Positions 2,245 through 6,376 of a DNA stretch of 6,376 nucleotides are shown here, in pieces. The position numbers were made by a program, and so were the translations under genes. Position 1 is the stretch's first letter, and every line of letters starts with the position of its first letter. Where the stretch lies: contig JAFPMR010000028.1 in NCBI GenBank assembly GCA_017411235.1, positions 1-6,376 on the forward strand, given 5' to 3'. The notes below the pieces were generated by a model. The model did not search any database. It was not told the origin of the DNA and saw only the letters and a list, made by a program, of their open reading frames with translations. Origin of the DNA: Bacilli bacterium (lineage in GTDB: Bacteria > Bacillota_I > Bacilli_A > RF39 > UBA660).

Positions 2245-3046
2245 TTATTTCTTTTTATTAATATGTAGTTTTAATTTTGTAGAAGGAGCTTCAGAATAGG
2301 TATTATCTATATTTAATTTAATATTATTAGTATTTGGTTCAGCTATATCTAATGCATCTTCTACTTTCTTTCTAGTGGATGATTGTTCTCCAAATGGATT
2401 ACTAAATAAATCATCCATATCATCCGACATTTTTATATCATCTATTGATTTTTTTGGAGTTTCTTCTTTCTTTGTATCATCAGAAGTTTGTGTATCAGAT
2501 TTCTTAAATAAATCATCTATATCTTGATTTATTTTACTATCCTCATTATCATTAAAATCATTATCATTAGTTCCTTCAAATTCTTCTTCAATGATTTCTT
2601 CTTCAACTTCTTCATCTAAAGGATGTTGTTTTACCCAACCACTATCATCTATAGTAATTCCTTTTCTTTTACATTGTTCAAGATATACTGGATTATTATA
2701 AGATAATTTTTGTTTATCATCAAATACCCAATCATTTTCAGGTTGTGTAAAATATGTTTGTGTTTCGATAATCTCATTTCCACTTCCGATGAACCCACGA
2801 CCCTTTATATCAGGTTTTGCTAAATTTGATATATCTTTTTCAAACATTAATTGTGATGCACCTTCATCAAATCCACCTAATAATACGGACATTTGGATAT
2901 TGTTCTTTAAATCACTTGATATAGTACTACCACTTGCTCTCTGACAAGCTAATGCTAAATGAACAGCAGCAGCACGTCCTAATCTAGCAATAGAACCTAA
3001 TGCTTGTTTTACTTTATCAACAGACTGATAATCATCAGATGTCATA
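2245..3046 (-). CDS. FtsK/SpoIIIE-like motor ATPase, C-extein exon 2
   Basis: This is the 3' exon of the gene that starts at 4971. Joined to 4289-4971 it stays in frame and gives a 494-residue precursor. Right after the junction comes the conserved FtsK region following Walker B. Exon 1 ends ...ADELNEL and exon 2 continues MTSDDYQSVDK, then RLGRAAAVHLALACQRAS (precursor residues 249-266), matching the FtsK pattern RAAGIHLVLATQRPS. A GRG turn follows at 310-312, as in the end of the FtsK motor core. From about residue 371 the protein becomes a long, acidic, low-complexity and presumably disordered tail with two DDLF motifs (403-408, 437-442) and a basic end (KLKLHINKKK). No FtsK gamma winged-helix domain is evident. 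There is no ribosome binding site before the ATG at 3045, so this is not a separate gene. Packaging, segregation or secretion roles are all possible for phage FtsK-like motors. Confidence 0.92.
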
Positions 3047-3425
3047 CATATTTGGACTATATCTTTATCCCATATACTATTACCATATATGAAATACCTA
3101 CTACTTCATTTTAATGGATTTATATTATGCTAATCTCACATAAAAACCAACCATATAGGCACTACTCTACTCATTTACTCACTATAGTATTTCTCTATAG
3201 TTACACTTTCGATAGTCTCTGAACCCATCTCTATTCGAGATTTGGATGCTGATTTACTAATTATTATACGACCTTAGGACCAGGATTACTTTTTCTGGCT
3301 TTTATTTCACCATAGCCTAGTTCTTTTATTTTTTCTACTTTCGTCACCGTCACACTTAGACTTATTTCATTCTTATGTTGTGGTTAAAAGAACATTATAG
3401 ATTCCAGCAATTCAATAGGTTAATT
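3047..3425 (-). ncRNA. Catalytic core of the group I intron (P2 3' strand to terminal G)
   Basis: This stretch without a gene is ribozyme. Reading in the RNA direction: the P2 3' strand is at 3417-3425. The P3 5' strand CUAUUG (3413-3418) pairs with UAAUAG (3077-3082). P4 pairs UGCUGG (3404-3409) with UCAGCA (3247-3252). P6 is formed by bases near 3244-3246 and 3224-3226, capped by a UCUC/GAGA helix (3237-3240 with 3228-3231). P7 pairs GACUAU (3212-3217) with AUAGUC (3055-3060). The latter sits in the classic AAGATATAGTCC string. A hairpin with CTATAG arms (3181-3201) lies between the P7 5' and P3 3' strands, where P7.1/P7.2 occur in IA introns. The long segment between the P4 strands holds P5-type extensions. 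The P3, P2 and P8 details are less certain than P4, P6 and P7. Confidence 0.88.
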
Positions 3426-3445
3426 CTTGCACACATTGATTATAA

Positions 3446-4249
3446 CTAATTATTTAAAAAATCATATAAATCTTGTAATTTCCAAAAAACTATATAATTT
3501 AATTTATTTTTTCTTGCGCATTTATATTTTTTTATATCTCTATTTGTCCAAACATTTATTGCATTTTGATAGTATTTAGATGTTTTTGCTTTTTCTTTCC
3601 ATTTCGTTAATTGTTGTTTACAAAATGTTTTTCTACCATCATATTTTATATGTCCGTGTGTCCAATGAAAATTACATTCAATATATAAATTTAATGGTAT
3701 TATATAAAAATCACATCTAAAAGGATATTCTAATGTTTTATAATTTCGTTTTACATTAGAATTTCCATAAAAATCACATAATTCTTTATATGCAATATTT
3801 TCTTGTTCTGATACCTTAAATGTTTTATTCTTTTTTAATGTATTATAATGTTTTTGAAGTGCTTCTTTTGAATGAGCATTTTCTTTTATTTGTGGGATTA
3901 AATATGGATTTTCTACATTATAATGTTGTTTTAGTGTTTGTTTACATTTTTCTAGTACTTCTGGTCTATTAAAAGGATGACCGAAAGTATTAGATAATGT
4001 TTCGTGTCTTTGTTTAATTACATTAGTATCTTTATTAGCACATATTTTATTACAATGTGTTTTATATCCATATCCTATTGATTGAAATTTAGTAGGTTTT
4101 CCACAAGTCGGGCAAATATGATACGAATTTGTATCTATATAAGTATCATAATAATATTTTTGCGATATATTTTTATGTTTTTTAGTTAAATGTGCAGATA
4201 AAACATTTAAATTTTTAAATTCTTTATTACATAATTTACATATATACAT
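3446..4249 (-). CDS. Intron-encoded homing endonuclease, EDxHD (Vsr-like) family
   Basis: This 267-aa protein has DNA-binding modules at the front and a nuclease at the back. Residues 4-25 form a C2H2 finger (C4, C7, H20, H25). Residues 46-70 form a second zinc site (CPTC plus C66 and C70). Residues 85-135 hold repeated helical units of the type NRPEVLEKCKQTLKQHY / NVENPYLIPQIKENA, common in phage homing nucleases. The C-terminal domain has the EDxHD pattern: E148 or E150 (SEQE), D180 (FRCDFY), the strand IECNFHWTHG with E191, H195 and H198, and D238 in WTNRDIKK, followed by NYIVFW. All expected catalytic positions appear present, so it is probably active. Its likely target is the intronless ATPase allele across the exon junction. 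The ATG follows an AGAGG ribosome binding site with an 8-base spacer. That site lies in the proposed P2 helix, so RNA folding may limit its translation. Confidence 0.9.
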   Translation of the reverse strand: MYICKLCNKEFKNLNVLSAHLTKKHKNISQKYYYDTYIDTNSYHICPTCGKPTKFQSIGYGYKTHCNKICANKDTNVIKQRHETLSNTFGHPFNRPEVLEKCKQTLKQHYNVENPYLIPQIKENAHSKEALQKHYNTLKKNKTFKVSEQENIAYKELCDFYGNSNVKRNYKTLEYPFRCDFYIIPLNLYIECNFHWTHGHIKYDGRKTFCKQQLTKWKEKAKTSKYYQNAINVWTNRDIKKYKCARKNKLNYIVFWKLQDLYDFLNN

Positions 4250-4269
4250 AATTATAACCTCTGTATACC

Positions 4270-4293
4270 GAGCCTATGACATCAGTTAAGCTC
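4270..4293 (-). other. 5' splice site and internal guide sequence (P1/P10)
   Basis: The last five exon bases (4289-4293) and the intron guide form P1, GAGCU with GGCUC, ending in the U-G wobble that defines the 5' splice site. The adjoining guide bases (4275-4283) match the first nine bases of exon 2 (3038-3046) perfectly as P10. The guide therefore aligns both exons in one continuous helix and fixes the junction between bases 4289 and 3046. Confidence 0.92.
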
Positions 4294-4971
4294 ATTTAAC
4301 TCATCTGCAAGGAATAATAATACTTTTGGTGTATAAATTCCTTTAGACATTCTAATTGAATTTTTATCAATATAAGAATTATAACCTTTTACTTCAGGTA
4401 ATTGTGGGTGTCTGCCTTCCCATTTATCTTCCATCATACCATCATAAATTTCTTGAATAGTTAATATCATAGGTTGTCTGCCATCTTGATATATTAACTT
4501 CATTTTATTATAATTTCTATCTTTTTCATCCAAATCAACAGTAAGTTCAAACATTTCATCAAATTGTACTTTTTCTCCAAAGACTTCAAAATAATTAACT
4601 TCTTTATCTTTGATTTTATAAATATTATTGACCTGTTGATTTTCCATAAACTTGAATCTGTCCATCATAATTTTCTGGAAGTTAGCCACAGTAGCAGCGG
4701 CAGTAGGTACATCTAAGGCAACACCTTTAACACCTTTAACACCTCTTAAAAGATTAAATTCAACCCTTTTACAATCAACACCTACTAATTGAAATCTATC
4801 GGCATATCTTGAAACGTGTCCTACAATAGACTGTTCTAATACAGATTTACCTGAATTATGAAATATAACTCCATTAGGCATTTGATAAAATGGGTCGTTT
4901 CCTTCTAATGAAAATCCAAAATAATGATTTGTTTGATTTAGAGGTTTAATAGAAAATTCGGTATTATTCAT
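4289..4971 (-). CDS. IntC fused to FtsK/SpoIIIE-like ATPase C-extein, exon 1
   Basis: This gene has its own ATG at 4971 and a strong AAGGAGG (4978-4984), 6 bases upstream. Residues 1-39 are a C-terminal intein fragment ending VIFHN. Residue 40 is the +1 Ser of the extein, and SGKSVL (40-45) is the second half of an FtsK Walker A loop (family form GxTGSGKSVL). DCKRVE (66-71) matches the FtsK DPKRVE signature. KVLLFLADE (216-224) is Walker B with D223 and E224. Between them lies a charged segment of about 95 residues, somewhat long for the family. The exon ends inside codon 228; joined to 2245-3046 it continues ELNELM-TSDDYQ. The protein lacks the first half of its P-loop and cannot bind ATP normally until it is trans-spliced to the N-half encoded to the right. 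It lies 21 bases after the 207-aa gene and is probably cotranscribed with it. Confidence 0.93.
4855..4971 (-). other. C-terminal split-intein fragment (IntC, 39 aa)
   Basis: The segment contains an intein F block, HYFGFSLEGNDPFYQ, and a G block, GVIFHN, with penultimate His38 and terminal Asn39 followed by Ser as +1 nucleophile. These are the residues needed for C-terminal cleavage and ligation. Its length fits natural IntC pieces, and it starts with its own Met a short distance before the F block. The matching N-fragment is encoded at 6136-6376. Splicing would leave the Walker A loop as ...G|SGKS. Confidence 0.92.
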
Positions 4972-4992
4972 AATTTACCTCCTTAATTTAAT

Positions 4993-5616
4993 TTATTTTG
5001 CAATAACAAAAAGTCCCTCATATGGAGAACTACCTCTACCTCTACCTCTTGTTTTCTCACATTTTCTAATAAAGTCATTTATAGTAATATAAACTTCACT
5101 CATAATTACATTACCTTTATCAGATGCAATTCCTTCTGAAATAACTCTATCAAGTACATTTTCATCAATTACATCTTTATCATAAGATAATTTATAATTT
5201 CTACCTGCTGTATCACTATCATAATTAATAATAGCTTTAAGCATTTGATAGGCTTTACCAGATTTACCATATTCATTTAAATCTGTAGTATCATCTGCAT
5301 CAAAACCATTATTATTATTTAATCTATCAATATTGACAAGTAATGCATATTGGAAATCATATTTAACCATAAGTCTAGCTAAAGTTCTCTGGTCAGCAGT
5401 ATCTAACCTATCACCTCTATCGAACTTTTTAACTAATTCACTTAAAATTTTTGCATCTGGAACATTAAAACCAAAATCATTATCAAATTTAGTCTGTTCT
5501 GCAACCTGTTCCATAGTTGTTTGCTCTTTATAAATCTTTCTAGCTGCTTCTTTTAAATCTTCTAAACTTGCAAACATTGTTGCATATGCTCTTTCTTCTG
5601 ACATAAGTACTAACAT
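4993..5616 (-). CDS. Unknown 207-aa protein between the split-intein halves
   Basis: The start at 5616 is favoured by AAAGGAG about 11 bases upstream; the next Met (residue 5) would be too far away. The protein is soluble and charged. Residues 59-86 (SELVKKFDRGDRLDTADQRT and following LARLMVKY) form a helical pair with the rhythm L..G..L...Q...L..L..KY. I associate this with short modules in phage replication or DNA-binding proteins, but this is only a resemblance. Residues 190-195 are RGRGRG, from a short tandem nucleotide repeat, followed by SSPYEGLFVIAK. There is no nuclease motif, so it is not the endonuclease often found between fractured intein halves. It lies immediately upstream of the IntC-ATPase gene, probably on the same transcript, and downstream of a terminator and candidate promoter. 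Function is unknown. Confidence 0.88.
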   Translation of the reverse strand: MLVLMSEERAYATMFASLEDLKEAARKIYKEQTTMEQVAEQTKFDNDFGFNVPDAKILSELVKKFDRGDRLDTADQRTLARLMVKYDFQYALLVNIDRLNNNNGFDADDTTDLNEYGKSGKAYQMLKAIINYDSDTAGRNYKLSYDKDVIDENVLDRVISEGIASDKGNVIMSEVYITINDFIRKCEKTRGRGRGSSPYEGLFVIAK

Positions 5617-5637
5617 AATTTTTTTCTCTCCTTTACA

Positions 5638-5668
5638 ATTATACTAAAAAAGAGCCTTAAATAATCAA
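5638..5668 (-). promoter_or_regulatory. Candidate promoter overlapping a terminator, upstream of the 207-aa gene
   Basis: On the minus strand TTGATT (5663-5668) and a perfect TATAAT (5638-5643) are separated by 19 bases, slightly long for sigma70/sigmaA. The -35 box falls in the terminator loop region and the -10 box lies just past the T run. It would restart transcription for the 207-aa gene and the IntC-ATPase gene after the upstream message ends. The -10 match is strong, the spacing weakens the call. Confidence 0.45.
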
Positions 5669-5678
5669 GACTCTTTTT
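5646..5678 (-). terminator. Intrinsic terminator after the 85-aa gene
   Basis: Minus-strand arms AAAAAGAGTCTT (5667-5678) and AAGGCTCTTTTT (5647-5658) make a 12-bp stem with one G-U wobble, an 8-base loop and a terminal T run. The A run on the other arm would let it also act in the opposite direction. It separates the 85-aa gene from the 207-aa gene, and so separates transcription of the two intein halves. Confidence 0.85.
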
Positions 5679-5702
5679 CGTCAGTTAGTTATTATTTAGT
5701 TT

Positions 5703-5960
5703 TTAAGAAATATGATTTTCAGATTTAAACATTTCATACCAATTTTTAGGTTCAAGAATCATATATCTTCTTTCATTTTCTGGTAATGCCATTTGTTCAA
5801 TCTCACATTCCTTTGTTGCTTTCGCCCATTCTTCATCAGTTTGATTATAAAATGGGAAATTAAATTTCTTTACCCAATCAGTAATGGTTTCACATTCAAA
5901 TGTATCTGTTTGCCACTCCAATTCAGTTGAAATTCTACTCTTTTCTATAACTTTAATCAT
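5703..5960 (-). CDS. Unknown 85-aa protein
   Basis: A small gene with an ATG at 5960 preceded by AAAGGA at a normal distance, ending just before a clear intrinsic terminator. The product is acidic and rich in Trp, Glu and Lys (for example ELEWQTDTFE, DEEWAKATKECE, EPKNWYEMF), with no membrane segment, signal peptide or metal-binding cluster. I do not recognise a family. It lies between the IntN gene and the 207-aa gene, within the gap separating the split-intein halves. The ribosome binding site and the terminator make it a believable gene. Nothing links its function to the ATPase beyond position. Confidence 0.8.
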   Translation of the reverse strand: MIKVIEKSRISTELEWQTDTFECETITDWVKKFNFPFYNQTDEEWAKATKECEIEQMALPENERRYMILEPKNWYEMFKSENHIS

Positions 5961-6013
5961 ATTAGTAAATTCCTTTCTTATAGTTATATTGTTTATTATG
6001 TAAACTTCTATAA

Positions 6014-6070
6014 TTATGGTCGTTCTCTAATCATATAATCTTCCTCCTTAAAAGTACTATTATTTTCCAT
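6014..6070 (-). CDS. Possible 18-codon (or 6-codon) mini-ORF with strong ribosome binding site
   Basis: A perfect AAGGAGG (6043-6049) lies 8 bases before an ATG (6032-6034) that opens only six codons, MIRERP, before TAA. The same frame extends upstream to an ATG at 6070, giving 18 residues, but the ribosome binding site then lies inside the ORF. It could be a leader peptide, the remains of a lost gene, or chance. The remaining bases of 5961-6135 hold nothing else I can support. Confidence 0.25.
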   Translation of the reverse strand: MENNSTFKEEDYMIRERP

Positions 6071-6135
6071 TTTTACTTCTTTCTTATTATTAAATAGTGC
6101 ATATTTTACCTATTTTGGTTGAATTTTAAGCATTT

Positions 6136-6376
6136 TTAGACTGTTTCCATAACCCAATGTGATTTAAATTCATCATTCATATACATATAGATATTTACAG
6201 GCATTTCTAAATGTTCTCCTGTATCTCTATCTATTAAAGCTAAAATATGTCCACCATTTACTACATAATTCTCTCCATTTACTGAAATTTCATACATTTC
6301 ATCATTTCCATTATGAATTTCTCCTACTTTTTTAGGTAATCCATCTTTACCAACTACTAAATCACCTATTTTTATA
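6136..6376 (-). CDS. N-terminal split-intein fragment (IntN), 3' end of the N-extein gene
   Basis: An open frame enters from the right edge and ends at TAA (6136-6138), giving 79 visible residues. It starts IKIGDLVVGKDGLPKKVGEI, the usual intein stretch after the A block (kvGD.v.g.dG...kV). Next comes MYEISVNGENYVVNGGHILA, a B block with its conserved His (visible residue 43) but Asn where Thr is usual. The rest, LEMPVNIYMYMNDEF and so on to METV, matches the end of an IntN. No endonuclease domain follows. The missing upstream part should hold the Cys1 or Ser1 A block and, before it, the N-extein ending in the first half of an FtsK Walker A loop. Its partner is the IntC at 4855-4971. About 20 intein residues are probably off the window. 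Confidence 0.85.
   Translation of the reverse strand, partial: IKIGDLVVGKDGLPKKVGEIHNGNDEMYEISVNGENYVVNGGHILALIDRDTGEHLEMPVNIYMYMNDEFKSHWVMETV

What the first reader, a model, noticed from the sequence alone, without database searches (positions are those of the whole stretch)
2245..6376. One ATPase gene broken at two levels: RNA splicing and protein trans-splicing
The coding information lies in three separate pieces: the N-half with IntN, exon 1 with IntC, and exon 2 after a group I intron. The insertions sit at the two most conserved spots of the ATPase, the Walker A loop and the residues just after Walker B. A functional motor needs both intron removal and intein trans-splicing, which could couple its appearance to RNA folding and to the balance of the two half-proteins.
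Basis: partly seen in the sequence, partly recalled or inferred. Interest (0 to 1): 0.93.

Follow-up and report, generated by a model that had tools for sequence, protein, structure and literature searches.

The report
Three-piece split intein in ATPase gene
A membrane ATPase gene of a huge mobile element lies in separate pieces that seem to be rejoined by removal of an RNA intron and by an intein that is itself split over three genes, an arrangement that I otherwise met only as a laboratory construct.

Summary
The intein reading needs correction. No ATPase N-half lies in the window. ORF 6375-6136 is the end of a free-standing middle piece of the intein. In 4 of 4 related contigs (250-467 kb) the intein is spread over three genes: an N-extein ending GGTG|C plus 14-21 residues, a separate 163-170-codon ORF 2-11 kb on, and an IntC of about 40 residues fused to the C-extein 0.1-28 kb further. 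The pieces tile one contiguous cis-intein of a Bacteroides phage helicase in order. Among metagenomic proteins 93 of 120 listed N-exteins end this way, 84 of 84 middle pieces lack block A, and 11 of 11 IntC end HN|SGKSV. In my searches of open-licence papers three-piece split inteins appeared only as synthetic. The middle piece's first ~70 residues resemble the second half of the Hint fold. Trans-splicing is inferred, not shown. Phage or conjugative element: open.

The parts
6136..6375 (-). C-terminal 79 residues of the free-standing intein middle piece M (open at the window end): body of the Hint domain after block A, with block B VNGGHIL
   Evidence: Pfam Hom_end_hint 32.1 bits, exactly the cut-off; family of 84 proteins, P0118 shares it; 4 of 4 relatives have it as a separate ORF
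5703..5960 (-). ORF of unknown function between M and IntC
   Evidence: no family
4993..5616 (-). ORF of unknown function between M and IntC
   Evidence: phrog_21015 (unknown function), E 1.7e-8
4978..4983 (-). AGGAGG, ribosome-binding site of the IntC ORF
   Evidence: sequence, by eye
4855..4971 (-). IntC, 39 residues, ends FHN
   Evidence: 11 of 11 relatives end HN|SGKSV
4289..4854 (-). C-extein exon 1 of the FtsK-like ATPase, from Ser+1 of SGKS to the codon split at LADELNEL
   Evidence: PF01580 29.9 bits against cut-off 24; phrog_1358 E 2.3e-10
3047..4288 (-). group I intron, 1242 nt
   Evidence: boundaries and empty sites; related introns match RF00028
4270..4293 (-). P1: exon GAGCT (4293-4289) and intron U pair with AGGCTC (4275-4270)
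   Evidence: by eye
3446..4249 (-). intron-encoded endonuclease ORF, 267 aa, C2H2-type zinc finger then a conserved E..CD.Y..E.N..H region
   Evidence: zf-C2H2_6 25.8 bits against 25; phrog_3339 homing endonuclease E 0.0035; alignment of 5 sequences
3047..3445 (-). 3' part of the intron with the conserved core, AAGATATAGTCC near its end
2245..3046 (-). C-extein exon 2 of the ATPase and an acidic tail
   Evidence: phrog_1358 E 1.8e-14; contiguous with exon 1 in P0012

Best explanation
The window carries two of the three pieces of a natural three-piece split intein, plus the intron-broken C-terminal part of its host protein, an FtsK/HerA-type ATPase with two predicted membrane segments. Piece N (outside the window; seen in 4 of 4 relatives) is the N-extein up to GGTG of Walker A, followed by Cys1 and about 15 more residues (block A only). 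Piece M (window 6375-6136 and beyond) is a separate protein with the body of the intein, including the block B His, preceded by a ~70-residue domain shaped like the second half of a Hint fold. Piece C (window 4971 on) is IntC ending His-Asn, then Ser+1 and the rest of the ATPase, whose message must first lose a group I intron. Proposed mechanism (inferred): the intron splices out; N, M and C assemble; the chain is passed from Cys1 to Ser+1, Asn cyclises, and an uninterrupted GGTGSGKS P-loop results, while M, the short N tail and IntC are left behind. Shown: anatomy, conservation, purifying selection, empty sites. Inferred: assembly, splicing, any regulation. The origin is most simply invasion by introns and an intein with endonuclease genes beside them.
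For: 4 of 4 contigs have the three pieces on one strand in the order N-M-C; gaps N-M 4.5, 2.4, 10.6, 4.5 kb and M-C 8.3, ~0.1, 17.3, 28.4 kb for G001-G004 (computed); G002 has one further weak M hit, 29%, inside a 914-residue frame. N-exteins: 93 of 120 listed proteins end GGTG|C with a tail of 10-23 residues in all, 69 of them 16; 0 of 120 with block B. M: 84 of 84 without a block A motif, 83 of 84 start with Met, Asn120 and His123 invariant, 115-177 aa, median 164. IntC: 11 of 11 end HN|SGKSV. In the contiguous cis-intein of Bacteroides phage BS162P1 helicase, N1 matches up to residue 139 (E 0.002), M 72-127 matches 140-195 (46%, E 3e-10), IntC matches 458-480 (E 0.002). A profile of M aligns to PI-SceI from intein residue 15. 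M, N and IntC+exon 1 pairs show dN 0.12-0.63 against dS 0.8-2.0 or saturated. Intein-free alleles: P0257, P0275, P0073, P0074, P0061, P0075.
Against: No splicing of protein or RNA was observed. The window's own N piece and the N-terminal part of its M are not seen; they are inferred from relatives and P0118. All relatives are metagenomic. M has an extra N-terminal domain absent from the cis-inteins that I read (L037-L041, L049, L050), with weaker constraint than the rest (dN 0.42-0.84 against dS 1.1-1.4 or saturated), so M may do something else. In two other phage cis-inteins the N1 match was partial (L039) or missing by BLAST (L037). Rfam does not recognise the window's intron at its cut-off. 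The M model has pTM 0.61 and no Foldseek match under E 0.001 (best Prp8 intein 0.018). 2 of 13 fitted junctions in the family (the first of L003 and of L009) do not fit.
Confidence: 0.8

Rival explanations
1. Ordinary two-piece split intein: in the window's own genome the M body is fused to Cys1 and the N-extein just beyond base 6376.
For: The frame is open at the window end.
Against: In 4 of 4 relatives and 84 of 84 family members M is free-standing and lacks block A; P0118, which shares the window's M sequence, has its own Met and N-terminal domain.
Confidence: 0.05
2. Decaying relic: the pieces no longer make a working ATPase.
For: Extreme fragmentation; alleles with further introns and endonuclease genes.
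Against: dN well under dS in all pieces; C1, block B His and HN|S kept; no intact replacement among the FtsK-type hits in relatives.
Confidence: 0.07
3. The gap between N1 and the M body is closed at the RNA level, by cis or trans splicing, so that the protein is an ordinary split intein.
For: Group I introns are abundant in this gene; in G002 an endonuclease ORF starts within the end of the N1 ORF.
Against: 2.4-10.6 kb with other genes lies between; N1 tails are conserved to their stop; M has a conserved Met start and a translated N-terminal domain before its body.
Confidence: 0.05
4. M is a free-standing Hint protein with another task (for example a regulator), and N and C pieces are not ligated through it.
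For: Extra N-terminal domain; position behind a sigma-factor-like gene in G001, G003, G004.
Against: N1 and IntC together lack block B and the body, and M lacks exactly N1 and IntC; the three tile one cis-intein.
Confidence: 0.06

Closest known systems
Synthetic three-piece split inteins (Sun, Yang, Liu 2004; title seen in the reference list of PMC11923092; content recalled)
   Same: Intein broken after block A and again before IntC
   Different: Laboratory constructs; here three natural genes with conserved break points and an extra domain on the middle piece
Atypically split natural inteins, AceL-TerL and GOS-TerL (passages of PMC11923092 and PMC11766414)
   Same: Very short IntN (about 15-25 aa in general; 25 and 37 for these two)
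   Different: There the rest of the intein is one piece; here it is broken again
Typical split inteins such as Npu DnaE and gp41-1 (passages of PMC11923092)
   Same: IntC of about 40 residues
   Different: Their IntN is one piece of about 100 aa; here it is two proteins
Fractured genes with free-standing homing endonucleases (Dassa 2009; paper not held; title, content recalled)
   Same: Split intein with endonuclease genes at break points (before IntC in L003, overlapping the end of N1 in L002)
   Different: Three pieces, and group I introns in the same gene
Intron- and intein-dense gut phages: Jug phages (PMC12363816) and crAss-like phages (PMC7886860); passages
   Same: Genes cut by several group I introns, inteins in the same genomes; RNA splicing shown for Jug phages
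   Different: No three-piece intein in the passages read; kinship with these elements not tested

Membership tests
Split intein (class 1) | N-terminal nucleophile at the splice junction | tested here: met
   Cys1 in 93 of 93 GGTG-ending split N-exteins and 4 of 4 contigs; the window's own N piece is not visible
Split intein (class 1) | Block B with His | tested here: met
   His123 in 84 of 84 and in the window; the usual Thr (recalled) is Asn here
Split intein (class 1) | C-terminal His-Asn before Cys, Ser or Thr | tested here: met
   HN|S in 11 of 11 and in the window
Split intein (class 1) | Hint fold | tested here: inconclusive
Split intein (class 1) | Trans-splicing activity | not testable with these tools
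   needs co-expression
Three-piece split intein | Three separately encoded fragments that tile one intein | tested here: met
   4 of 4 relatives; tiling; the window shows M and C only
Group I intron | P1 with U.G at the 5' splice site and terminal G | tested here: met
   by eye
Group I intron | Match to Rfam RF00028 | tested here: inconclusive
   window 14.8 bits, E 0.23 in a 407-base search, none in the whole window; related introns 35-42 bits, cut-off 50
Group I intron | Empty homologous site in relatives | tested here: met
   L001, L003, P0012
EDxHD-type homing endonuclease (name recalled) | Catalytic motif and fold | tested here: inconclusive
   conserved E, D, E, H residues in 5 sequences, window included; the PDB sequence search matched zinc-finger proteins and nothing convincing for the nuclease part
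FtsK/SpoIIIE family | PF01580 over its cut-off | tested here: met
   exon 1, 29.9 bits against 24; exon 2 alone 11.6 bits, under it
Tailed phage genome | Terminase, sheath or capsid family | tested here: inconclusive
   no match: PF03237 0 of 3; PF17289, PF04984, PF05065, PF07068 0 of 4 each, the last with a silent control; records may be fragments
Conjugative element | VirB4-like ATPase and relaxase | tested here: inconclusive
   PF12846 over cut-off in 4 of 4, but the G001 protein also matches a phage terminase family, phrog_2666 E 1.2e-9; PF03432 0 of 4

The most novel reading that the evidence does not exclude
M is a dedicated maturation factor: a free-standing intein body that acts in trans as a protein-ligase subunit, so that the ATPase is switched on only when a third gene is expressed. 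Its first ~70 residues, a degenerate copy of the second Hint half, would keep the open horseshoe folded and inactive, like a zymogen, until the 16-residue N tail and IntC displace it.
Probability: 0.25. Interest if true: 0.95.

Novelty: new variant of a known kind. Interest (0 to 1): 0.87.

Why it matters
In the papers that I could search, three-piece split inteins are laboratory constructs. A natural, conserved one would show that an intein can be kept working as three genes, would offer fragments already adapted to assemble from three parts (for labelling or three-input logic), and is an extreme case of gene fragmentation: in G002 the ATPase appears to need three proteins and a C-extein message of five exons. 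It also makes a question testable: do multi-piece inteins persist only as parasites, or do they gate a protein's appearance?

Tried and rejected
Whole genome of the window: none held, so a second ATPase copy could be sought only in relatives. Rfam on the whole window gave one chance match, NEAT1. tblastn of IntC-exon 1 against 50,697 phage and 72,556 plasmid records: no match. M against GTDB genomes: 2 loci, both in genes with block A joined on, cis-inteins. M against IMG/VR: 12 loci, 2 of them (G003, G001) matching the whole M, 10 only from residue 72-76 on; this scan missed G002 and G004, which other searches found, so it is not exhaustive. N-extein alignment against IMG/VR: the same 4 contigs. 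My notebook entry that no phage record matches M's first part went too far: of 234 records I saw ten rows, starting at residues 69-79, and the tool reports 0 covering 80% of M. hhalign of M's N-terminal domain with its own block-B half: P 0.0059, probability 6%, 51 columns, suggestive only; with IntC, nothing. A circular permutation was considered; I keep only the shape similarity of residues 1-71 to the second Hint half, from a candidate list already rich in inteins. RNAalifold on 7 intron cores: 29 of 50 predicted pairs with a two-sided change, but no pseudoknot can be drawn and no shuffle control was run. All 10 paper searches were used; for 'three-piece split intein' 18 papers held the term, 15 were listed, and I read passages of two of these (PMC11923092, PMC11766414) and of PMC7765530, where the term does not occur. 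So 'not in print' is claimed only within these open-licence searches.
Full report
What was claimed and what is there. On the minus strand the window gives, in order: an ORF with intein body sequence that runs off the window (6375-6136), two ORFs of unknown function, IntC fused to an FtsK-like ATPase exon (4971-4289), an intron with an endonuclease ORF (4288-3047), and exon 2 (3046-2245).

The intron. Exon 1 ends GAGCT, the intron begins TAACTG and ends AAATATG, exon 2 begins TATGACATC. The last exon bases can pair with AGGCUC inside the intron, leaving a U.G pair at the splice site (by eye). L001 and L003 have the site uninterrupted, and P0012, identical to the window over 120 residues before the site and 93.6% after, is contiguous there. 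Rfam scores the window's intron weakly (nothing at E<=1 for the whole window, E 0.23 for the 3' part), but finds introns of the same gene in relatives: L003 at E 3.6e-7, and three in L009 at 1.9e-8, 9.8e-8 and 1.5e-6, all under the curated 50 bits. The window's core is 75% identical over 341 columns to the L003 intron and 80% over 483 columns, exon included, to the endonuclease-free intron at the same site in L002. Of 13 junctions fitted in five genomes, 11 have a stop-free ligation with T before the intron and G at its end among the two printed fits; the first junctions of L003 and L009 do not. Introns fitted in the C-extein: 1 in the window, 1 in G001, 4 in G002, 4 in G003, 3 in G004 plus one seen only by Rfam (12304-12657 of L009).

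The intein is in three pieces. Searching four related contigs with that ORF and with an intein-free N-half (P0074) placed the two apart. In G001-G004 the N-half ends ..GGTG|CFDGETPVLMYNTLV..GGTG|CFSEQTPIRMFNTLERPYDSTM..GGTG|CMEENTPVMMYDTLVH and ..GGTG|CMEKNTPVVMHDSIIK, each followed by a stop. The body of the intein is a separate ORF of 163-170 codons, 4.5, 2.4, 10.6 and 4.5 kb further on, and IntC lies 8.3, about 0.1, 17.3 and 28.4 kb beyond that (contig ranges, ORFs). The window shows the last two of these three pieces, 1.16 kb apart.

It is a conserved arrangement. A protein search with the middle piece returned 84 proteins: 115-177 aa, median 164, 83 starting with Met, none with a block A motif, all with the block B His. 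A search with the N-half returned 132, the best 120 listed: 93 end GGTG|C plus a short tail, 4 have an intact GGTGSGKS, 23 lack GGTG. Of those 23, P0266 and P0273 end GSTG|C plus a tail and P0277 ends TG|C plus a tail behind a second, complete intein. 116 of 118 N-halves have two hydrophobic stretches, 2 have three. IntC with HN|SGKSV is in 11 of 11; in P0070 and P0072 the frame reads in from an endonuclease remnant. P0118, which shares the window's M sequence up to its last residues, has 159 residues with the extra N-terminal domain.

The pieces tile one intein. The contiguous cis-intein in the helicase of Bacteroides phage BS162P1 reads GSGK|CHGKGTKILMYD, then GSIKNVEDIVVGDLL.., and later DYYGFTLDG..THN. 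N1 matches up to residue 139, M from residue 140, IntC 458-480. In Vibrio phage 393E50-1 the N1 match is eight residues; in phiHSIC BLAST found no N1 match, though C, then MSDG, is there by eye. The M profile joins PI-SceI at intein residue 15. The M-like proteins that I read outside this family (L037-L041, L049, L050) have block A joined on.

Function and selection. M, N and IntC-exon 1 show dN 0.12-0.63 against dS 0.8-2.0 or saturated; the extra domain alone is less constrained (dN 0.42-0.84, dS 1.1-1.4 or saturated). The catalytic features are kept, so trans-splicing of three proteins to restore the P-loop is the simplest reading. Nothing here shows the reaction. Alleles without the intein or the intron, and endonuclease genes at the breaks (L003 6465-7538 before IntC, L002 5377-6429 over the end of N1), fit a mobile-element origin. 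Regulation is possible but unsupported.

What the element is. IMG/VR lists the contigs as viral. The terminase, sheath and capsid families that I tried gave nothing, which is weak evidence. All four contigs hold a VirB4/HerA-like ATPase over the Pfam cut-off, about 2 kb before the N-half in G004 and G002 and far from it in G001 and G003. The G001 protein has distant matches (under 60% identity, 24-26% in the rows shown) in 204 plasmid records and 3 phage records, and also matches a phage terminase family (phrog_2666, E 1.2e-9). No PF03432 relaxase was found. A coupling protein of a huge conjugative element and a phage motor are both open.

Known or new. Intron-dense gut phages are known (PMC12363816, PMC7886860; passages), as are atypically split inteins with an IntN of about 15-25 residues and typical ones with an IntC of about 40 (PMC11923092; passages). 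Both breaks at once I met only as synthetic designs (listings; passages). I rate it a new variant of a known kind.

Noticed in passing
P0277 (N-extein protein, 420 aa): A complete intein starting PLALDT and ending YTRN lies between GG and TG of Walker A, then only TG, then the three-piece N1: two inteins two residues apart.
   Followed up: partly
L023 3189-3587 (-), L026 2571-2993 (-), L028 1323-2390 (-): FtsK-paralog fragments (in L028 an endonuclease ORF running into one) end NNP or SNP, then LSxDTLVxxK or similar: perhaps a short N piece with Pro first, of a second multi-piece intein of class 3 type (class recalled).
   Followed up: no
L026 1131-1481 (-) and 5252-5722 (-): A free-standing Hint-like ORF without block A, and another IntC-like start (..SHN|SVLTQN) on an FtsK paralog (by eye).
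   Followed up: no
L034 3069-5246 (-): VirB4/HerA-like ATPase with what looks like an intein starting with Pro right after GSGK (by eye).
   Followed up: no
P0070, P0072: Endonuclease zinc-finger remnants reading straight into IntC.
   Followed up: partly
L010, L011, L013: The middle-piece gene sits directly behind a sigma-factor-like gene in G003, G001 and G004 (named by eye).
   Followed up: no
L019 1438-2526 (+), L027 2865-3791 (-): FtsK-like paralogs with an altered P-loop (GGKGSGKN) or none.
   Followed up: no
L009 5219-7930, L036 2615-3709 (-), L033 11697-12548: Cas3-like helicase (by eye), adenylosuccinate synthetase (PF00709) and sortase-like (by eye) genes on these contigs.
   Followed up: no
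window 3110-3224 and 3328-3426: Intron segments match Staphylococcus phage Machias (75%) and Enterocloster phages (81%); part of the endonuclease ORF matches Prevotella Lak phages (66-70%).
   Followed up: no
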